A stretch of 64,000 nt of DNA from Aquimarina agarivorans (GTDB lineage Bacteria > Bacteroidota > Bacteroidia > Flavobacteriales > Flavobacteriaceae): positions 1-64,000 of the forward strand of contig NZ_AFPB01000086.1 of assembly GCF_000218485.1 (NCBI RefSeq). The letters are read 5' to 3'. The notes beneath the pieces were generated by a model. The model was not told the origin of the DNA. It saw only the letters and a list, made by a program, of their open reading frames with translations, and ran no database searches. Position 1 is the stretch's first letter, and every line of letters starts with the position of its first letter. Positions 1 to 9,872 of this stretch are shown one piece after another. The position numbers and the translations under genes were made by a program.

Positions 1-224
1 AAAACAACACTGCCAATAGCTCTAATCAATTGAATATGTTTGACTTATAACCGGACAATAGTGATAAATTACCTTTATTTACACAAAAATAGATCAAAGT
101 TTATTACCTTAATTTTTGATAGTTATTGAAAATCTGAAGTTTATTATTGCATTATTATATTGTGAAATATATACTATTCACGAGAACTTCGCATGTAATT
201 ACTATTTAATTTTGAACATTATTT

Positions 225-1229
225 ATGAAAACTCTTAATTGCCCTAATTGTAATAGTATAGTTTATTTCGAGAATGATTCTTGTATTAATTGCAATGCTA
301 CTTTACACTTCGATCCTAGAATTTTTAATTTCATCCAACTTGGTAATAGCAGTAATAACATTAACGATATCAATGCTATATCTAAACCTTGCATCAATCA
401 TCAATTTAATTTATGCAACTGGATTGCGGCAGATAATGCAGATTACTGTGTTTCCTGCAAGCTAAATAATGAAATTCCTACTGTTGGCGATACTGAAAAT
501 TATCAAAAGTATATAAAACTAGAAAATGCCAAACGCCAATTGGTGTATCAACTATTGAAATTAAAACTTCCTGTAGTATCGAAGATTGAAAATAACAAAC
601 TTGGACTAATGTTCAATTTTATTCCCGAAAATAATTCTAAAGGATTAAAAACGGGTTATATGGATGGCACGATCACCATTCTATTAAAAGAAGCCGATGC
701 TGTAGAAAGGGCACAAATTCGCAAATTATTATCGGAGCCCTACCGTACATTGATTGGACATTTTCGACATGAAATAGGACACTATTATTTTAGTCAACTA
801 ATTAATAATCAAAACCTATCGCAATACCGAAACCTTTTTGGTAATGAGGAAATAGATTACCAACAAAGCCTTAAACGTTACTATCAAAATGGACCACCAA
901 ATAATTGGAATGCACATTATATTTCTAAATATGCCTCAGCGCACCCTGCAGAAGATTGGGCAGAAACATGGTCGCACTACTTGCATATTATTGACCTTTT
1001 AGAAACAGCGCATTGTAATAATATTTGTTTTAATGAAAATGGAATCACTTTAAATTACATAGATCCATATAATTCAACGGATACTAATACTATTATTCAT
1101 CAAAGTATCATTTTAAATATTGTAGCCAATAACCTAAATAGAAGCATGGGTATCCCTGATACTTACCCTTTCGTATTACCTAAGCCTATGTATAATAAAC
1201 TAGCATTTATTCATAGCCTTTTTAGTTAG
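225..1229 (+). CDS. zinc-ribbon putative zincin metallopeptidase
   Basis: A 334-residue soluble protein with no signal peptide. The N-terminus has Cys pairs C6/C9 and C20/C23, then C56, C64, C75 and C78, which looks like one or two zinc ribbons. A zincin signature HEIGH follows at residues 182-186 (two zinc His and the catalytic Glu), and an acidic-aromatic stretch at 242-251 (AEDWAETWSH) could give a third ligand. This matches the zinc-ribbon plus putative zinc-binding peptidase family (COG4307 / Peptidase_Mx type). In other bacteria such genes tend to sit near ATP-grasp/transglutaminase-like operons (from memory); here the left neighbour is outside the window. Substrate unknown. ATG start at 225; it stands alone, with about 100 bp and then decayed DNA downstream. 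Confidence 0.8.
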   Translation: MKTLNCPNCNSIVYFENDSCINCNATLHFDPRIFNFIQLGNSSNNINDINAISKPCINHQFNLCNWIAADNADYCVSCKLNNEIPTVGDTENYQKYIKLENAKRQLVYQLLKLKLPVVSKIENNKLGLMFNFIPENNSKGLKTGYMDGTITILLKEADAVERAQIRKLLSEPYRTLIGHFRHEIGHYYFSQLINNQNLSQYRNLFGNEEIDYQQSLKRYYQNGPPNNWNAHYISKYASAHPAEDWAETWSHYLHIIDLLETAHCNNICFNENGITLNYIDPYNSTDTNTIIHQSIILNIVANNLNRSMGIPDTYPFVLPKPMYNKLAFIHSLFS

Positions 1230-1325
1230 CATAAGTTCATTATAAAATTATAACACTAACAATTACGATAACTTAAACTAATCCATCAAAAATAATTATA
1301 CCTATAATAAAAGCTGTATTGTTAG

Positions 1326-1658
1326 GTGTTTGAATTGAATATTGATAGTTATAACTTAGTTACTTTCACTTTAGATAAAATAAGGGATTCGATTCATTCT
1401 TCTCTAGAAAAACAGGACGAGTTATTTGAGAGTTCTAATATGTTTACAAAAGAATATATTGATCGTTAATCTATTTACAATAATGGTTTGCTACAATTTG
1501 ACAAACCTTCAGCTATTAATATAGAATTTAATGATTCTTTTTTCTCCTCATTTTTCGATAAATATATTGAATTACCTAGTCAAAAAGTAAAAGAAGGCAG
1601 TAAAACTCTATTGATTTCACCATTTAAAAAGAATATTCTTAATTGTAATAAGGTTTAA
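1326..1658 (+). pseudogene. decayed gene fragment, 111 codons with one internal stop
   Basis: A frame starting at a possible GTG (1326) reads as protein-like sequence for 111 codons, interrupted only by a TAA at 1467-1469, and ends with TAA at 1656-1658. The conceptual product is hydrophilic, rich in Phe, Ser and Asp, and contains FNDSFFSSFFDKYIELP. I do not recognise the family. It lies between an intact metallopeptidase and the defence-type gene, in a 960-bp stretch without intact genes. It is probably the remnant of a lost gene. Calling it a pseudogene is inference from the single stop in an otherwise open, coherent frame. Confidence 0.35.
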
Positions 1659-1686
1659 AGCTAGTTCGAAGCAATCTTAAAAAGTT

Positions 1687-1925
1687 TCAATATTTTCTAA
1701 AATATAGTAATTGATCGCCAATACTACAGGCTCGCTACTCACTAAATTTAAGCTCTTGCGGGAACTACACGAGAATGCCGTAGAAAAAAATATTGCAGGA
1801 TTATTATCTAATACGAGAATTTTGAAACAATCTAAATGACTTTTACATAATGTCAGATATAAAACACTAATAATATAAAATGCAAGCATTCGCCAATTTG
1901 CTACAATATACATTTGTCCTATAAT
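1687..1925. repeat. left copy of degenerate direct repeat flanking the SIR2 gene
   Basis: Three or four blocks here recur in the same order and orientation on the other side of the 1030-codon gene. Block A is 1692-1706 (15 identical bases, ttttctaaaatatag). Block B is 1753-1820, matching 5692-5759 at 63 of 68 positions by eye. A short block is 1841-1850 (ttttacataa). Block C is 1912-1925 (atttgtcctataat). Block B is in frame with a coding remnant (1711-1839) that reads LLRELHENAVEKNIAGLLS. The right copy encodes the same peptide with V to I, so the repeat seems to derive from a gene. Confidence 0.6.
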
Positions 1926-2193
1926 GTTCTGCGTTAAATAACTTTGCTTTGGTAAAAAGCTTTTACCACTGAAATCTTCTTTGATTTTTTTTCTCAAATG
2001 TTTCTTCTGCTATAGTAATGGAACACTTATTATGCGAGCCAACGGAAGGAGGGGAGTGTAATGTGTGTGGAATGGGTAATTTGTTTCTAACTTTCTATTA
2101 ATTACGGATTTCCCTCAAAGTTATTCATACAAAATTTACTATATTTATTTTTTCTGCTTGATTAAATTTCCCCATTGCACTAATATATAATTC

Positions 2194-5100
2194 ATGAACG
2201 AAACTATAATACCTAAAGCTTTATTAGATCAAATAAAAGATGGAAATGTAATCTTATTTTTAGGTGCAGGTGCGACATTTGATGCAAAACATCCTAGATA
2301 CGAATCTCCACCAACTGGGAGGCAATTATCGAACTTAATTGCAAGAAAATTTTTAGGTGATAAGTATTTAGATATGGATTTACAATTTGTTTCTGAATTA
2401 GCAATAAGTGAAACAGATTTATTTAGTGTACAGCAATTTATAGCTGATATTTTTAAAGAGTTTAAGCCAGGTAATCATCATTTAAGAATCCCTTTGTATC
2501 GTTGGCACTCTATTTTTACTACAAACTATGATTTAGTAATAGAAGATTCATATGAAATTAAAGAAAGGCAACAAGTACTTGCAACTTTTGTTAAAGATGG
2601 AGAAAGAATAAAAGACAAAATGATTTTTCCGAATTCACTTATGTATAATAAATTACACGGATCAATAACAGATATAAATGATCAAAAATTACCTTTAATT
2701 TTAACTCCAGATCAATATGTTGATCATAAAGAAAACCGTTCACGTTTATTTAAGCGATTACAAGAGTTCTCATATGATTACCCGATTTTATTTGTTGGTT
2801 TTAGTTTTGCGGATTTAGATATAAGACTTACTCTAAAAGAACTTAATAAACTTGGAGATGCTAGACCGAGATCTTATATGATTGGACCACATATTACAGA
2901 TGCTGAACAAAGATTATGGGATTTAAAAAAGATTTCATCTATAAAATTATCTTTTAAAGATTTCATGGAAAGGTTAAAAACTGATATTAGTGAAAATGAA
3001 CGAGTTTTAAGTGGAATTATTAAAAAAAGCTATTCACATCCAATAATGCATAAATTCCAATCTGATGCAAAAGAACCATCAGATAGATTAATGGAATTTT
3101 TAGAAAGAGATATAACTTATGTTCATCCTAATTTAGCAGAAGAAAATACTGATCCAAAGACTTTTTATAAAGGTTATTTTGAAGGTTGGGATCCAATAAT
3201 TAAAAACTACGATGTACAAAGAAATGTAACAGATTCAATTTTATCAGAAGTTTTTTTAATAGAAGAAAATGAAAGGTTAACAGAACAAGAATTGTATCTA
3301 ATTAAAGGCAATGCTGGATCTGGTAAGACTGTGTTATTACACAGGTTAACTTGGGAAGCGTCTGTAACTTTTGAACGACTTTGTTTTTATTATAAATCAG
3401 ATCTATCAATTGAATATAATCGTATCTCAGAATTATATCAATTAGTTAAAGAAAGAATATATCTTTTTATTGATAATGTTACCGAAAGAGTTGAGGATAT
3501 AGAATATATCTTATCAAAAGCTAAAAAAGATAAAATACAAATTACAATAATATCAGCAGAAAGAACTAATGTATGGAATGTAGAAGGAGATAGGTTATCT
3601 CATTTATTAAGTCGAAGTTATACATTAGGTTACTTAAAGGATAAGGAAATAGAAAACCTTATAGAACTTCTTACAAAATATAAATCATTAGGCTATTTAA
3701 CTGGTAAAAGTTTAGAAAAACAAAAAGAAGCTTTATCTGAAAAATCAGGCAGAGAGTTATTAGTAGCTCTATATGAAGCAACAGCAGGAAAGCCTTTTCC
3801 AGATATTGTTATGGACGAATATAAATCGATTCCAAATGAGGAAGCCAAAAGTTTGTATTTGACAATATCTATGTTTCACAGAATTGGCACTTATGCAAGA
3901 GCTGGTAATATTTCAAGATTACATAATATTAATTTCTCATATTTTAAAGAAAAATTATTTAAACCTTTAGAGTCTGTAGTTTATAATCATAGGAATTATG
4001 TTATTAATGACTTTGTTTTTACTACTAGACATCAATATATTGCTGAACTAGTCTTCGAACAAGTTTTAGTCGATCAAGATGCAAGATTTCAAAAATATAT
4101 TGCAGTAATTTCAAGTTTAGATATTGATTATGATAGTGATAGACAAGTATTTGTTGATTTAACTAATGCTCGAAAATTAATGGCAACATTTAAAGAGGCA
4201 AATATAATTAGAAGTATTTATGAGGTTGCCTATGAAAATGTTGGTGAAGAATCATCTCTATTACAACAGGAGTCTATTTTTGAAATGAACTCAAGTGGTG
4301 GTAATTTTGAAAAAGCAGATTTATTACTAAAAAAAGCACATGAAATGGATCCAGATAATCCATTCATAGCACATTCAAAAGCTGAATTCCTTCTTAGAAA
4401 AGCTGAGAAATCTGGACAAGATTTAATTACAAAAAAACTTTTAGCGTCTGCAAAAGATGTTTGTAATGATATTATTAAAAATAGAAAAACTAAAAATAAG
4501 TCTCATGGATATCATACCCTTTTAAAAATCTACTTATTTGAGTTAGAAAAATTATTTAAAGGAAATAATACTGAATTACTAGAAACTAAAATTCAAGAAT
4601 TTGAAAAGACCATCAGTAAATCGAAACAATCATATCCAAATGAAAGTTTTTTATTGGATGCAGAATCAAGTTTTAATGAGCTACTAAATAATTCACCACA
4701 AGCATTTGAATCACTAAAATCTGCTTTTGAATTGAATAAGAGAAGTCCTTATTTAGCAACAAGATTGTCTAATTATTATGTTGAAAATGATGATATTGAT
4801 ACTGGATTAGGTGTTTTATTAGAGACTATAAATTTAAATCTAAATAACAAAGATTTAAACTTCTTGTACGCTAAATTATTAATGACCAAGAACCCTGAAG
4901 ATTATGGCGAAATAAAACACTATTTAAGAAAGTCTTTTACTAAAATGGACAAGAGATATGATGCTCAATTTTGGTATGCAAGAATATTATATTTACTTGA
5001 TGACAAAGAGTATATTGATTATTTTGAATATTTAAAAGGGGCTCCATTAGATATTAGAAGAAAGAAAAAACCTCAAGGTACAGTTACAGAAAATTTGATA

Positions 5101-5286
5101 ACAAAAACTTATGATGGTACAATTACTAAACTTGAAAGTTCATATGGATTTATAAAACAAGACTTTAGCGGTGAAACTATATATTTCCATAGAGGAATAG
5201 ATTTACAAGATTTAAGGTTTAATTCTAGAGTTAAATTTAATAAAGCTTTTAATTATAATGGAGTTATAGCATTATTGGCAACTTAG
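2194..5286 (+). CDS. SIR2 / STAND-like NTPase / TPR / cold-shock-like defence protein
   Basis: A 1030-residue protein with four regions. (1) Residues 15-215, a SIR2-like domain: GAGA 24-27, TTNYD 109-113, KLHG with H155 as the likely catalytic His, and GFSFADLD 202-209. (2) Residues about 320-620, a P-loop NTPase: Walker A GNAGSGKT 372-379, hydrophobic Walker B ending in D427, and SAERTN 454-459, followed by helical sequence typical of STAND ATPases. (3) Residues about 690-960, TPR-like helical pairs. (4) Residues 975-1029, a cold-shock-like beta-barrel with YGFIKQD and IYFHRG. SIR2-STAND proteins are known anti-phage NADases: the repeat region senses, the NTPase oligomerises, and SIR2 depletes NAD. 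That role is inferred here. The gene stands alone, looks more AT-rich than its neighbours, and lies between decayed repeats, which suggests horizontal acquisition. Confidence 0.85.
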   Translation: MNETIIPKALLDQIKDGNVILFLGAGATFDAKHPRYESPPTGRQLSNLIARKFLGDKYLDMDLQFVSELAISETDLFSVQQFIADIFKEFKPGNHHLRIPLYRWHSIFTTNYDLVIEDSYEIKERQQVLATFVKDGERIKDKMIFPNSLMYNKLHGSITDINDQKLPLILTPDQYVDHKENRSRLFKRLQEFSYDYPILFVGFSFADLDIRLTLKELNKLGDARPRSYMIGPHITDAEQRLWDLKKISSIKLSFKDFMERLKTDISENERVLSGIIKKSYSHPIMHKFQSDAKEPSDRLMEFLERDITYVHPNLAEENTDPKTFYKGYFEGWDPIIKNYDVQRNVTDSILSEVFLIEENERLTEQELYLIKGNAGSGKTVLLHRLTWEASVTFERLCFYYKSDLSIEYNRISELYQLVKERIYLFIDNVTERVEDIEYILSKAKKDKIQITIISAERTNVWNVEGDRLSHLLSRSYTLGYLKDKEIENLIELLTKYKSLGYLTGKSLEKQKEALSEKSGRELLVALYEATAGKPFPDIVMDEYKSIPNEEAKSLYLTISMFHRIGTYARAGNISRLHNINFSYFKEKLFKPLESVVYNHRNYVINDFVFTTRHQYIAELVFEQVLVDQDARFQKYIAVISSLDIDYDSDRQVFVDLTNARKLMATFKEANIIRSIYEVAYENVGEESSLLQQESIFEMNSSGGNFEKADLLLKKAHEMDPDNPFIAHSKAEFLLRKAEKSGQDLITKKLLASAKDVCNDIIKNRKTKNKSHGYHTLLKIYLFELEKLFKGNNTELLETKIQEFEKTISKSKQSYPNESFLLDAESSFNELLNNSPQAFESLKSAFELNKRSPYLATRLSNYYVENDDIDTGLGVLLETINLNLNNKDLNFLYAKLLMTKNPEDYGEIKHYLRKSFTKMDKRYDAQFWYARILYLLDDKEYIDYFEYLKGAPLDIRRKKKPQGTVTENLITKTYDGTITKLESSYGFIKQDFSGETIYFHRGIDLQDLRFNSRVKFNKAFNYNGVIALLAT

Positions 5287-6261
<975 letters not shown>

Positions 6262-6843
6262 TTATTGCACATCTTCAGAAACTATTGGTTCAATGGTTCC
6301 GTCATAAGAAATTGGATTTAAGTGTGATGAATTTACAATAACCTGAACTCGATCGGAATTTGAAGCCCATATGATAAATGTATGATTTTCGACATTGTTG
6401 TTGGCGTTCAATTTTGCCGTTACTGTATTCTTTTTTGGATTTGTAGTAACGGTGTATTGTTTCATTAAATTTTGAACACGAATTCCATTATCTGTAGTTC
6501 CATAATTCCCACTAATTTGTCGTTCTCCAAAGAATGGTAAATCTGCATCAATGGAATCTCCCATTATTTTTATAAAATTCCCATTTCCTTGAACATCAAT
6601 ACGTGCTGCAGAATTTCCTGTGGGAAATAAAATAGTATTCAATACCTGATTGGTTGCTGTTGTATTAAATGGATATACAGCCTTAATATTAATTTGATAT
6701 TTTTTACTCTCAATCAATTGTATTAAAGCGGCTAATTGCTCCTTTTCCTGAGCGGAGTTTACCAAACGACTTGATTTACAAGCTATAAAACAACTCGCTA
6801 CACTAATCACTATAAAGCATTTTACAATAAAATTCATACCCAT
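6262..6843 (-). CDS. DUF4251 domain lipoprotein
   Basis: A 193-residue predicted lipoprotein. The signal peptide ends in a lipobox with C22 (CFIAC), so it is probably anchored in an outer or inner membrane leaflet. The mature part is beta-rich and contains the FFGERQISGNYGTTDNGI core and a C-terminal ISYDGTIEP segment, both typical of the Bacteroidota DUF4251 family. The function of the family is unknown. It is transcribed leftwards, 104 bp downstream of the small beta-sandwich gene, and may form a loose group with it. Nothing looks disrupted. Confidence 0.85.
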   Translation of the reverse strand: MGMNFIVKCFIVISVASCFIACKSSRLVNSAQEKEQLAALIQLIESKKYQINIKAVYPFNTTATNQVLNTILFPTGNSAARIDVQGNGNFIKIMGDSIDADLPFFGERQISGNYGTTDNGIRVQNLMKQYTVTTNPKKNTVTAKLNANNNVENHTFIIWASNSDRVQVIVNSSHLNPISYDGTIEPIVSEDVQ

Positions 6844-6947
6844 ATCTCTATTGGTATTAATATACGAAATAGTTGCGAGGTTTTGCCTATTTAGTTTTTA
6901 GCTTTTGACCATTGAGTGTTGGCTTTTGATAATTTCTTGTATAATAA

Positions 6948-7217
6948 CTATAGAAACACTAAAATTTCCTCCACGCCTGCTTCAATAGGACTTACATTTA
7001 TTGATTTGTACTGTTTGTATCCTTCCTTTATAATTGTAAGCACGTAGGTATCTTGATCTAAATCGTAGTATTTGAATTCTCCTAGCTCGTTTGTCAGCTG
7101 CGCGATATCTTTAGAGAACCTATTTTCTGCATTTAGCGTAATTATAGCCTCTTTAATGGGCTTATTTGTAGTTTTATCAAAAACTTTTCCTAAAATTGAA
7201 AATTTCATCACCTTCAT
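6948..7217 (-). CDS. small carboxypeptidase-regulatory-like domain protein
   Basis: An 89-residue protein that is essentially a single carboxypeptidase regulatory-like (CarboxypepD_reg / DUF4480-type) beta-sandwich: GKVFDKTTNKPIKEAIITL at the start, a TNELGEFKY turn in the middle, and YVLTIIKEGYKQY at the end. Such domains usually sit at the N-terminus of TonB-dependent receptors or other surface proteins. Here it stands alone with no signal peptide visible, so it could be cytoplasmic or a remnant of a larger protein. ATG start at 7217. Function unknown. Confidence 0.75.
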   Translation of the reverse strand: MKVMKFSILGKVFDKTTNKPIKEAIITLNAENRFSKDIAQLTNELGEFKYYDLDQDTYVLTIIKEGYKQYKSINVSPIEAGVEEILVFL

Positions 7218-7229
7218 TCAAATTAAAAA

Positions 7230-7310
7230 CAGCATTCAGTTTAACAATTATACTGTTTCTGGTATTAAAAAACAGTTAACAGTGTTGCAATTGTTAAACT
7301 ATGAATGCTG
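7230..7310. repeat. long imperfect hairpin between two minus-strand genes
   Basis: The left arm 7230-7249 (cagcattcagtttaacaatt) pairs with the right arm 7289-7310, whose reverse complement differs only by two inserted bases. An inner pair, actgttt 7252-7258 and aaacagt 7270-7276, extends the fold. It lies between the protease stop and the next gene's start, both on the minus strand. It could be a terminator-like structure or a small palindromic repeat element. There is no T-tract directly after the stem. Confidence 0.5.
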
Positions 7311-7332
7311 CTATCAACACATCCTCAATAAA

Positions 7333-8043
7333 TTATTTATATTTTTTCTTCCAATTGCTAATGTTTTTATACACCGCAGTATTAATTCGAGTAGCTGAAT
7401 TCCCTAATTTAGAACCGTTAGTATGAATACCAACTACGTAGCGTTTCCCGTTTTTGTATTTCCATACGGGCGAACCACTTTGTCCTCCTGCAGTGACAAT
7501 ATTATATACAAGTGTTCTTGGCGTTACTGCTTTAATTTTTCGGCAATGCCACCACTGCGTACCTAATGGTTTGTCTCCCGGATACCCAGAAAGGTTGACT
7601 TTTAAACCAAATAGTTTGGTGAAATTGTAATTTGCAAATCCGAAATAACCTACCGTATTTCCAAACTTGCAGTTTTTTGGTAAAATAATGGCTCCATAGT
7701 CATTGATACGTTTTTTCTTTTTTGTCCAACCAGTTACCGAATGAAAATGGCTTGTTTTGCATGATCCGTATGGTTTTTTTGAGCCATTACAGCCAGGGAT
7801 CACCTCGATACTTTTTGCCCAACCGCCGTGTTTATGCATATATACCACGTGTCCAGCCGTAATTACAGTCCGTGGTCCTACTAAAAATCCAGTACCAATC
7901 CAGCTTGTACCATCTTTAGCTTTTATACGTAATGAGCAAATGGCACGCCAAGGATATCGTTTTGTTCCTGCATCATTTTTTGACCACTTTCCGTTCGCAT
8001 TAAATTTTCTAAATCCTCCCCTTCGTAACTTGCTTAATATGCG
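7333..8043 (-). CDS. trypsin-like serine protease (V8/Glu-endopeptidase type), 5' end frameshifted
   Basis: The open frame runs from 8043 to the stop at 7333. It holds a full chymotrypsin-fold triad: His in the VITAGHVVY segment, Asp in INDYGAIIL, and Ser in AGGQSGSP. The only start-like codon downstream is a GTG at 7848, which lies just after the catalytic His and would give an inactive 171-residue protein. No ATG, GTG or TTG lies upstream in frame before the stop at 8044-8046. The domain therefore probably continues from the acidic frame at 8034-8405 through a 1-nt shift. The family is extracellular in most bacteria, but no signal peptide is visible here. The alternatives are an assembly indel or a true pseudogene. 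Confidence 0.7.
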   Translation of the reverse strand, partial: RILSKLRRGGFRKFNANGKWSKNDAGTKRYPWRAICSLRIKAKDGTSWIGTGFLVGPRTVITAGHVVYMHKHGGWAKSIEVIPGCNGSKKPYGSCKTSHFHSVTGWTKKKKRINDYGAIILPKNCKFGNTVGYFGFANYNFTKLFGLKVNLSGYPGDKPLGTQWWHCRKIKAVTPRTLVYNIVTAGGQSGSPVWKYKNGKRYVVGIHTNGSKLGNSATRINTAVYKNISNWKKKYK

Positions 8044-8405
8044 TTAATTGCATTTTCGCTAAAGTCACTTTCGGCAAAGTGCTCCTGATCTTCTTCTACT
8101 ATAGAATAGTCATAACCATTGACCTGTTCCAAGGTGGCTTCATTACTATTCTTTTCGTACGCCTCACTTTGAGCTACATCATCCGCTCCACCTTCAAATG
8201 GATTTTCCGAATTTGCAGTCGTATTGCTTTCATCTGTACTTGTTACTTCTTGATAATCTGATTCATTGACATCATCTTCAAATTCGTTTACCGCTTCATC
8301 AAATTCCGAAGATGCATTTTCAACTTCTTGTTTTCCATTGAAAGATTCTTCCAATGCATTTTCATCGATTACTGTTTCCGATTCGTATACCCCATTACTT
8401 TTCAT
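8034..8405 (-). CDS. acidic N-terminal region, probable propeptide of the adjacent protease
   Basis: A 123-residue, strongly acidic sequence (many Glu, Asp, Ser and Asn) with no recognisable fold and no signal peptide, starting at the ATG at 8405. Its stop (8034-8036) overlaps the start of the open protease frame, which is in another frame. The protease frame lacks its own start, so the simplest reading is one gene of about 360 codons (7333-8405) broken by a single-base change around 8036-8046. If it is a separate gene, its function is unknown. Confidence 0.6.
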   Translation of the reverse strand: MKSNGVYESETVIDENALEESFNGKQEVENASSEFDEAVNEFEDDVNESDYQEVTSTDESNTTANSENPFEGGADDVAQSEAYEKNSNEATLEQVNGYDYSIVEEDQEHFAESDFSENAINAY

Positions 8406-8831
8406 AATTTTAAATTTAAATGTTATTGTATACTTTAAAATTACTAATTAATGTTTTGTTTATCAGTATTTTAAATACGGTTTTGCTTTAGGTGAAATAC
8501 GGTTTTTTATAAGGGGAAATGTATTGATTGTGGGGAAAAACACGGTATTGATTACAGTTAAAATGATTCACTATGGGCTAAAAGTATCATAGTTTCGGTT
8601 ATGACTAAAAGTTATTGCTTTTTTAAACATCCGTTTTTTGCAATTAGCTATTAGCCTTTGGCTATCATATTTTAAAGTCAACAGCTAATTGCCAATAGCT
8701 CTTGTAATATTTTTAGAAGCTAAAAGCGAAAGGCATTAAAAATGCATAGTTTTAACTAAACCTGAGATCAATAAAAAAAACCACTCAAACGGGAGTTCAA
8801 GTGGTTTTTTAAATACGATTATAATTGCTAT
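8406..8831. other. 426-bp intergenic region with dispersed agct-type repeat fragments
   Basis: No gene is seen. At 8641-8735 there are degenerate pieces built on agctatta, gccaatagct and gaagctaaaagcgaaaggc. Related pieces occur near 10-26, 6891-6930 and 12624-12662. The right end carries the hairpin terminator of the cysteine synthase-like gene (separate entry). Confidence 0.45.
8775..8810 (-). terminator. Rho-independent terminator of the cysteine synthase-like gene
   Basis: Arms aaccact and agtggtt, flanked by A and T runs, form an 11-bp stem around a caaacgggagttca loop. It lies 22 bp past the stop of the minus-strand gene. The symmetric A and T tracts make it potentially bidirectional. 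Confidence 0.8.
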
Positions 8832-9872
8832 TTAACGTACAAATTGAATTTTAGTAGTGTTTCCTTCTCTAATACTATCGAAAAACCCTTGCTTATTCAT
8901 CCATTCGTCGCTAAAAACTTTACTTAAATACCTTGATCCATGGTCGGGAAGAATGATTACTACATTACTATTAGCATCAAATTCGCCATGTTCAGCAAAT
9001 TGTTTAACGCCTTGTATAGCAGCACCGCTGGTATAGCCTAAAAACATCCCTTCTTTAAGTACCAATTCTCGGGCAGTATGCGCACTATCTTCATCAGTTA
9101 CTTTTTCGAATTTATCAATAATATCAAAATCGGTCGCTGTAGGTATTAAATTTTTTCCTAGGCCTTCAATTCGGTAAGGATAAATCTCTTTATCATCAAA
9201 TTCACGTGTTTCATGGTACTTTTTTAGTACCGAACCAAAAGCATCTACACCTAATACTTTAATATCAGAATTTTGTTCTTTCAAATAACGTGCTGTACCC
9301 GATATAGTTCCTCCAGTTCCACTACAGGCCACTAAATGCGTTATTTTGCCGTTTGTTTGTTTCCAAATTTCAGGACCAGTGGATTTAAAATGAGCATCCA
9401 TATTCAACTCATTAAAATATTGATTAATATATACGGATCCTTTAATTTCCGAATGTAATCTACGAGCAACTTGATAATAAGAACGGGGATCATCGGCACT
9501 AACGTTTGCAGGACAAACGTACACCTTGGCTCCCATATTCTTTAGGGTTTCAATTTTATCTTTTGATGATTTTGAACTTACGGCCAGTACACACTCATAT
9601 CCTTTTATGATACTTACCATAGCCAGACTAAAGCCAGTATTTCCACTGGTAGTTTCAATAATAGTGTCTCCTGGTTTGAGAATGCCCTTTTTTTCAGCTT
9701 CTTCAATTATATAAAGTGCAATTCTGTCTTTTGTAGAATGTCCCGGATTAAAAGCCTCCACTTTAGCGTAAAAATTACCAGGTATACCCTCGATGATCTT
9801 GTTTAATTTTACTAGTGGTGTATTTCCAATTAAATCAAGTACACTATTAAAAGCCTGTATATCGTCTTTCAT
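8832..9872 (-). CDS. PLP-dependent cysteine synthase / cystathionine beta-synthase family enzyme
   Basis: A 346-residue fold-type II PLP enzyme. The Schiff-base Lys is K48 in HSTKDR, the substrate loop TTSGNTG is at 74-80, and the phosphate-binding loop SGTGGT is at 184-189. The [10 protein letters not shown] start is typical of CysK/CysM/CBS enzymes. It probably makes cysteine from O-acetylserine, or cystathionine from serine and homocysteine. The length (about 345) and lack of a CBS-pair domain favour a short CBS/CysM-like enzyme; the exact substrate cannot be read. A possible promoter box (tatcttta on the minus strand) lies about 25 bp upstream. It is monocistronic with a clear terminator. 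Confidence 0.88.

What the first reader, a model, noticed from the sequence alone, without database searches (positions are those of the whole stretch)
2194..5286. Single-gene candidate immune system: SIR2 + STAND-like NTPase + TPR + cold-shock-like domain
All SIR2 signature segments are visible (GAGA, TTNYD, KLHG, GFSFADLD), joined to a P-loop NTPase and a long helical repeat region. SIR2-STAND proteins are known anti-phage NADases (Avs and related families), but the C-terminal cold-shock-like barrel is an unusual end to that architecture. The gene is alone, AT-rich and in scar DNA, as expected for an acquired defence gene.
Basis: partly seen in the sequence, partly recalled or inferred. Interest (0 to 1): 0.85.

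Follow-up and report, generated by a model that had tools for sequence, protein, structure and literature searches.

The report
SAMD9-like bacterial SIR2 defence protein
One bacterial gene carries a SIR2 enzyme domain, a STAND-type ATPase domain, helical repeats and a cold-shock-type barrel, in the same order as the core of the human antiviral protein SAMD9; it is predicted to shut down phage-infected cells by destroying NAD+, and would give a simple bacterial model of how that human protein is built and switched on.

Summary
ORF 2194-5286 (+) encodes 1,030 residues: SIR2 (PF13289), nSTAND_NTPase5 (PF25199), a helical-repeat arm and a C-terminal cold-shock domain (CSD). The CSD is supported by Pfam in some relatives, by profile search and by a predicted model. 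It is not an odd tail: of 252 relatives of at least 960 residues, 252 keep SIR2 and 249 the CSD. SIR2 Asn111/His155 and P-loop Lys378 are 252 of 252. Among solved structures the sequence is nearest to Avs5, but the NTPase belongs to another Pfam family and Avs5 is not described with a CSD. The predicted model aligns end to end (residues 3-1030) with human SAMD9. Best reading: a single-gene, STAND-gated NADase against phages, a new variant between Avs5 and SAMD9. Defence is inferred: the gene is patchy, occurs on plasmids and prophage-like contigs beside integrases, and in a close congener the same junction holds a Pycsar system; neighbour tallies against random regions showed no enrichment. 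Unexpectedly, the 'scar' flanks carry a ~294-nt non-coding repeat with matches in 86 of 299 genomes of the host family (69 at E<=1e-10). In congeners it brackets restriction and toxin-antitoxin genes, so the gene looks like one cassette of a defence-gene array.

The parts
2194..5286 (+). Whole gene, 1,030 aa, ATG start, TAG stop
2215..3003 (+). SIR2 (PF13289) effector domain, residues about 8-270; Asn111 and His155 predicted catalytic
3121..3633 (+). STAND P-loop NTPase (PF25199), residues about 310-480; Walker A GNAGSGKT 372-379, Walker B-like LFID 424-427
3634..4263 (+). Helical / winged-helix-like part of the STAND module, residues about 481-690 (label inferred from the model and STAND architecture)
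4264..5073 (+). TPR-like helical repeat arm, residues about 691-960
5092..5283 (+). Cold-shock (OB) domain, residues about 967-1030
5685..5976 (+). Full copy of the ~294-nt conserved non-coding repeat (model 1-291)
1747..1838 (+). Partial copy of the same repeat (model 2-92), same orientation, upstream of the gene
5881..5910 (+). Left arm of an imperfect inverted repeat inside the full repeat copy
   Evidence: coordinates read
6112..6140 (+). Right arm of that inverted repeat, beside the DUF4251 gene
   Evidence: coordinates read
6262..6843 (-). DUF4251 gene: conserved anchor next to the variable junction in congeners

Best explanation
The gene encodes a single-chain SIR2-STAND NTPase-TPR-cold-shock-domain protein that is predicted to act as a stand-alone anti-phage switch, which once triggered would assemble and hydrolyse NAD+ to stop the infected cell. 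Proposed cycle: at rest the TPR arm and CSD fold back on the NTPase and hold it in the off state. A phage product, most likely a phage protein on the TPR arm and/or phage RNA or single-stranded DNA on the CSD, opens it. ATP binding then drives self-assembly, and the clustered SIR2 domains become active and deplete NAD+. Shown here: domain order, invariant catalytic and P-loop residues, conserved aromatic positions at the RNP-like motifs of the CSD, patchy and mobile distribution. Inferred: NADase activity, self-assembly, nucleic-acid binding, the trigger and the anti-phage outcome.
For: Domains and order. SIR2 Asn111 and His155 and P-loop Lys378 252 of 252. Nearest solved relatives are SIR2 defence proteins: EfAvs5 E 2.4e-18, ThsA, KomC by profile; Foldseek first hit EfAvs5 9jap E 4.8e-24, then SAMD9, the AVAST5 filament 9nc9 and DSR2. 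NTPase part matches EfAvs5 E 4.8e-10. CSD positions: 984 Y/F 81/84, 986 F/Y 80/84, 997 Y/F 81/84, 999 Y/H/F 68/84; in the wider set 984 Y/F 233, 986 F/W/Y 200, 997 F/Y 239, 999 H/Y/F 203 of 252. Sporadic: a full-length close match in 1 of the 33 genomes searched of the genus, its own; 4 of 395 in the order and 3 of 395 in the phylum at E<=1e-60, own included. Mobile: 14 of 19 matching plasmid records cover at least 80% of the query; 5 IMG/VR contigs, three with an integrase as next ORF (L014, L015, L016), one beside portal and terminase genes (L012); resolvase directly upstream, and TnsB/TnsC-like genes on the same stretch, in L022; integrase, PD-Lambda-5_A and AbiEi near L024. Congener G007 carries PycTM and PycC (Pycsar) plus ParDE at the junction where the window has this gene.
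Against: No activity is measured. Relatives L001, L003 and L021, and the more distant L023, have housekeeping-type next genes (aldehyde dehydrogenase, LpxD-like, MetRS, RF-1), not islands. PADLOC hits among 98 neighbour ORFs (30 families) are no richer than among 149 ORFs of random regions of four of the same genomes (41 families). The C-terminal sensor is only mildly more variable than the effector (mean identity to the window protein over 67 rows: TPR 0.41, CSD 0.37, SIR2 0.53), with no sign of hypervariability. Several plasmid and viral-contig relatives have weak CSD RNP-like motifs, position 999 being P, S, A or D in 4 of 7 such loci. No PADLOC model matched beyond the SIR2 or the P-loop part. 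No phage record matched. The copy in L016 is split into two ORFs and L015 is cut by the contig end.
Confidence: 0.72

Rival explanations
1. It is simply a divergent Avs5: the TPR arm senses a phage protein, and the CSD is a structural cap with no sensing role.
For: Closest solved sequence and first Foldseek hit are Avs5; same tripartite order apart from the end; CSD RNP-like motifs are weak in several plasmid and viral-contig relatives.
Against: nSTAND3, the Avs5 NTPase family, is below cut-off while nSTAND_NTPase5 is far above; CSD kept in 249 of 252 relatives of at least 960 residues, with mostly aromatic residues at its RNP-like positions.
Confidence: 0.3
2. It works like SAMD9 in the strict sense: the output is translation arrest, with SIR2 as a structural or regulatory part rather than an NADase.
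Against: No AlbA_2/tRNase domain row in the protein, which is the SAMD9 effector (PMC13245274); SIR2 catalytic residues invariant, whereas SAMD9 has a variant SIR2 (PMC5445408).
Confidence: 0.07
3. It guards against plasmids or other mobile elements, or stabilises the element that carries it, rather than acting on phages.
For: Found on plasmids and beside transposition genes; SIR2 effectors of short Argonaute systems (SPARSA) also match the SIR2 part.
Against: Also carried by IMG/VR contigs next to integrases, as anti-phage cargo of phages and satellites is (PMC9122126, passages); I saw no obvious antitoxin gene beside it in the window.
Confidence: 0.12
4. A housekeeping SIR2/TPR regulatory protein unrelated to conflict.
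For: Several relatives have housekeeping-type next genes.
Against: Sporadic presence, different neighbours in the loci compared, plasmids and viral contigs, and no full-length match in the other 32 genomes searched of the genus.
Confidence: 0.04

Closest known systems
Avs5 (AVAST type V, SIR2-STAND; EfAvs5 9jap, PaAvs5)
   Same: N-terminal SIR2 PF13289, central STAND NTPase, C-terminal helical repeats; best solved sequence and first Foldseek match
   Different: NTPase is nSTAND_NTPase5, not nSTAND3; extra C-terminal CSD (the passages of PMC12931631 that I searched name none); 1,030 aa against 869 for the EfAvs5 chain; the 9jap match ends at model residue 849
SAMD9/SAMD9L core (human 9zjr; bacterial members in Mekhedov et al. 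2017, PMC5445408)
   Same: Order SIR2, P-loop NTPase, TPR, cold-shock-like OB; alignment spans model 3-1030 and chain 389-1587
   Different: No AlbA_2 nuclease, SAM or kinase domain row; SIR2 catalytic residues and canonical GKT P-loop intact, whereas that family has GGT/S (PMC5445408); no SAMD9 among the rows shown of two profile searches
DSR2 (defence-associated sirtuin 2)
   Different: No NTPase in DSR2 (recalled); the well-fitting match is limited to the SIR2 domain
ThsA and KomC SIR2 NADases
   Same: SIR2 domain, catalytic Asn and His aligned
   Different: Parts of multi-gene systems (recalled) without STAND, TPR or CSD
YB-1, Unr and Csp cold-shock domains
   Different: Here fused to a STAND effector; the stacking Trp of YB-1 (recalled) appears to be Lys979 here, an alignment made by eye

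Membership tests
Avs5 (AVAST type V) | N-terminal SIR2-like effector PF13289 | tested here: met
   75.4 bits, cut-off 24.5
Avs5 (AVAST type V) | nSTAND3 (PF20720) NTPase, as stated in PMC12931631 section 9 | tested here: not met
   17.2 bits, cut-off 27.2; nSTAND_NTPase5 84 bits, cut-off 34
Avs5 (AVAST type V) | C-terminal helical repeats as sensor | tested here: met
   helices 691-960 in the model; TPR hits in relatives. Sensing itself not tested
Avs5 (AVAST type V) | NAD+ depletion on phage infection | not testable with these tools
   N111 and H155 252 of 252; no assay
Avs5 (AVAST type V) | Match to a PADLOC Avs5 model | tested here: inconclusive
   no such row at E<=1; I did not check how PADLOC models Avs5
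SAMD9 family | Core order SIR2, P-loop STAND-like NTPase, TPR, cold-shock-like OB | tested here: met
   order from PMC5445408
SAMD9 family | AlbA_2 / tRNase-SA domain before SIR2 (lost in some members per PMC5445408) | tested here: not met
   no AlbA_2 row at E<=0.1; SIR2 starts at residue about 8
SAMD9 family | Walker A with Gly in place of Lys (GGT/S) | tested here: not met
   GNAGSGKT; K378 252 of 252
SAMD9 family | Sequence-level homology to SAMD9 | tested here: inconclusive
   SAMD9 not among the best 60 of 127 rows nor the best 60 of 76; the remaining rows were not shown
Cold-shock domain (PF00313) | Five-stranded OB barrel with RNP-like aromatic positions | tested here: met
Canonical integron (for the flanking repeat array) | Integron integrase (TIGR02249) | tested here: not met
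   0 of 12 congeners over the cut-off of 265 bits; matches are listed in pieces, best piece 127.4, the strongest pairs of pieces sum to about 210
Canonical integron (for the flanking repeat array) | Sites with imperfect inverted repeats between co-oriented cassettes | tested here: inconclusive
   inverted repeat in 17 of 26 copies tested at p<=0.01; copies co-oriented; recombination not tested

The most novel reading that the evidence does not exclude
This family is a fully equipped prokaryotic counterpart of the SAMD9 core: SIR2-STAND-TPR-CSD with both enzyme sites intact, in which the CSD senses phage RNA or single-stranded DNA and licenses NAD+ destruction, so that SAMD9 would descend from, or share, a nucleic-acid-gated NADase ancestor. 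In its host the gene is one cassette of a family-wide array of defence cassettes divided by a ~294-nt, inverted-repeat-bearing non-coding element that lacks an integron integrase.
Probability: 0.25. Interest if true: 0.85.

Novelty: new variant of a known kind. Interest (0 to 1): 0.62.

Why it matters
SAMD9/9L are antiviral proteins linked to human disease whose trigger is unknown (PMC13245274, section 21). A bacterial protein with the same four-domain order and intact catalytic sites would give a tractable system in which the roles of the STAND switch, TPR arm and cold-shock end can be tested with phages. It also widens SIR2-STAND immunity beyond Avs5 and predicts a nucleic-acid-sensing element in it. 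The flanking repeat array, if confirmed, would be a ready index to unknown defence genes in flavobacteria and their relatives.

Tried and rejected
PADLOC neighbour enrichment was tried with a control: 98 of the 103 neighbour ORFs of at least 90 aa in L001-L003 and L021-L024 gave 30 families; all 149 ORFs of at least 100 aa in 8 random regions (two from each of G420, G375, G243, G549) gave 41. Single-gene PADLOC hits therefore do not discriminate; I rely on complete or near-complete systems and mobile-element genes instead. A separate scan of 59 of the 72 neighbour ORFs in the five IMG/VR loci gave only AbiD, capP and HTH_VI rows. Effector swapping (other N-termini on the same NTPase-TPR-CSD) was looked for with two searches from residue 300 on, each showing its best 120. 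I found none: six shortened rows that I looked at (of 20 proteins under 960 residues) begin in the SIR2 domain, the linker or the NTPase as judged by eye, except that the first residues of P0217 are unassigned. My simple motif patterns missed some relatives (P-loop 231, TTN 228 of 252); an alignment showed that the key residues are there. Phage records: no match. E. coli genomes: no near-identical match to the Klebsiella plasmid relative; a distant search there was not made. Rfam: no match in window 1-9000. A consensus RNA fold of the repeat is weak (-3.66 kcal/mol, 11 pairs). A coding reading of the repeat (my first guess) was dropped: six copies show no long open frame in common. Integron proper was set aside for lack of an integrase over cut-off. 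The left repeat copy has no significant inverted-repeat partner in the script (p 0.615). One of the five CSD-only models was poor (pLDDT 44.9), and Foldseek gave no match at E<=0.001 for that model. SAMD9 does not appear among the rows of that model, which excludes nothing.

A claim of novelty rests on searches of open-licence PMC papers only, judged from titles, starts of abstracts and the passages named in the full report: none that I saw describes a SIR2-nSTAND5-TPR-CSD family. I did not search papers for the repeat array.
Full report
CHECK OF THE OBSERVATION. The ORF 2194-5286 (+) is real and complete, 1,030 codons. Pfam places SIR2_2 at 106-248 (E 6.2e-21) and nSTAND_NTPase5 at 323-466 (E 1.2e-23). 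In 84 aligned relatives (A1; 84 of the 120 proteins listed; 44-80% identity to the window protein) G24, G26, N111, D113, H155, G156, D207 and R211 of the SIR2 part and G372, G375, G377 and K378 of the P-loop are 84/84. In all 252 collected proteins of at least 960 residues N111, H155, G375, G377 and K378 are 252/252, D207 251, G24 246, G26 242, G372 237. A phmmer alignment puts H155 on the KomC histidine that is changed to Asn in entry 9xvc.

LITERATURE. Mekhedov, Makarova and Koonin 2017 (PMC5445408; [quoted passage not shown] The Avs5 paper (PMC12931631; abstract, sections 6 and 9, passages) gives Avs5 as PF13289 + nSTAND3 PF20720 + repeats, with NAD+ hydrolysis on jumbo-phage infection, and notes its resemblance to SAMD9. 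The SAMD9 review (PMC13245274; passages, sections 21 and 22) says that the SAMD9/9L triggers are unknown. PMC7159879 (passages) mentions CSDs among conflict-system domains. Rousset, Depardieu et al. (PMC9122126; passages) mention SIR2-STAND proteins in a phage-satellite hotspot. None of the papers that my searches listed (titles, starts of abstracts, these passages) describes this four-domain family.

DISTRIBUTION AND MOBILITY. One copy in the own genome. Among 56 genomes of relatives, 4 match at E<=0.001, but only the window's own is a full-length close match; the others are 23-28% identical and partial. At E<=1e-60: 4 of 395 genomes of the order and 3 of 395 of the phylum, own genome included. 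Plasmids: 19 records, 14 with at least 80% of the query in one place (Klebsiella, Vibrio, Acinetobacter, Psychrobacter, Methylobacterium), 29-35% identical. The Vibrio copy lies among conjugative-transfer genes with an Abi gene about 6 kb away, the Psychrobacter copy beside type I restriction genes, the Klebsiella copy among transposases. Phage records: none. L016 is split into two ORFs and L015 is cut by the contig end. L022 (contig length equal to that of P0026, Chryseobacterium oranimense) has a resolvase directly upstream and TnsB/TnsC-like genes about 5-8 kb upstream. L024 has an integrase, a full-length PD-Lambda-5_A (E 3e-170) and AbiEi. Against this, L001, L003, L021 and L023 have housekeeping-type next genes, and the PADLOC tally shows no enrichment over random regions (98 vs 149 ORFs, 30 vs 41 families).

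THE LOCUS IN THE WINDOW. Two close congeners, G005 and G007, share the block to the right (cysteine synthase 96-97%, DUF4251 57-58% in both; the peptidase gene matched in G007 only) and have no match to the SIR2 gene in the whole genome. In G007 the stretch beyond DUF4251 holds PycTM and PycC (PycC E 1e-156), a DUF4238 gene and a ParDE pair. The G005 contig ends about 0.7 kb beyond DUF4251. The window contig starts at base 1, so the left border of the variable region is unknown.

THE FLANKING REPEAT. The 81-nt direct repeat found at 1744-1824 and 5683-5763 belongs to a ~294-nt non-coding element. A profile built by iteration finds 29 copies in the window's first 9 kb plus 13 fetched stretches of 11 congeners (12 of 13 stretches have at least one; most were fetched because BLAST had shown a repeat there) and none in the other 55 kb of the window. 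Copies share one orientation in 9 of 9 stretches with two or more, and ORFs between them mostly point the same way. By BLAST at E<=0.001, 24 of 37 genomes of the genus have it and 86 of 299 genomes of the family, in 74 of 236 genera, own included; 17 of the 86 have only weak, often short matches, and 69 reach E<=1e-10 by my count. The family is probably Flavobacteriaceae, inferred from a contig length shared between G243 and P0140, Flavobacterium humidisoli. Of the 24, 20 also have a DUF4251 hit, all 20 on the same contig as a repeat: 11 within 0.5 kb, 14 within 3 kb, 6 at 26-58 kb; 4 have no DUF4251 hit. C5 DNA-methylase genes lie between copies in 3 of 8 genomes searched: 3 of 12 such genes (15 rows merged by hand) in 80 kb of 39.8 Mb, Poisson P 5e-7. 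I picked that family after seeing such ORF starts, so the figure is post hoc. A ParDE pair lies between two copies in G007; the Pycsar genes have a copy on one side only. An imperfect inverted repeat is significant (p<=0.01, 200 shuffles) in 17 of the 26 copies tested (3 of 29 lacked the box pattern), with compensating bases (GGAC/GTCC in the window and G007, GTAC/GTAC in G014). No integron integrase is over cut-off in 12 congeners. I read the gene as one cassette of a repeat-divided array rich in defence genes; how the array moves is unknown.

MECHANISM. Shown: domain content, invariant sites, mobility, CSD family and fold (the fold from a predicted model). From established knowledge of Avs5, ThsA, KomC and DSR2 (recalled, apart from Avs5 in PMC12931631): SIR2 domains of this kind hydrolyse NAD+ when activated, several of them in assemblies. 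Inferred: autoinhibition by the TPR arm and CSD, ATP-driven assembly, triggering by phage protein or nucleic acid, and cell arrest. I give 0.72 to the STAND-gated NADase defence reading and lower odds to the CSD being the sensor itself.

VERDICT. It is a new variant of a known kind: it fails the nSTAND3 test for Avs5 and the AlbA_2 and GGT/S tests for SAMD9, yet is built like the SAMD9 core and most likely works like Avs5.

Noticed in passing
window 5685-5976, 1747-1838; L052, L069-L087: A ~294-nt conserved non-coding repeat with an inverted-repeat pair, matched in 86 of 299 genomes of the family (69 at E<=1e-10), separating mostly co-oriented genes next to a DUF4251 gene in congeners; restriction and toxin-antitoxin genes lie between copies. 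Possibly a new kind of defence cassette array.
   Followed up: partly
L052:3154-8864 (congener G007): At the junction where the window has the SIR2 gene, a close congener carries a Pycsar pair (PycTM, PycC), a DUF4238 gene and ParDE.
   Followed up: yes
L002:3958-7626: Two large adjacent ORFs (587 and 633 aa) just upstream of the Dokdonia relative: no PADLOC family at E<=1e-10, and no Pfam family at E<=1e-4 apart from a below-cut-off trypsin-like hit in the first.
   Followed up: no
L005 (G023), L006 (G034): Distant SIR2 proteins in open frames of 1,055 aa, 23% and 25% identical over query residues 9-847 and 8-737, probably a sister branch; their C-termini were not examined.
   Followed up: no
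L058 (Klebsiella plasmid): The relative is annotated as two ORFs, a 5' SIR2 piece and the rest, in 8 plasmid records with the same identity and coverage (one of the 8 opened); described only.
   Followed up: no
window 225-1229: Zinc-ribbon plus Peptidase_Mx protein at the contig edge, with a match in only one other of 37 genomes of the genus set searched: likely part of the same variable region.
   Followed up: partly
window 7333-8405: The congener's single 369-aa trypsin-like gene (L052:10506-11615) corresponds to two shorter ORFs here, so the gene may be broken in the window.
   Followed up: no
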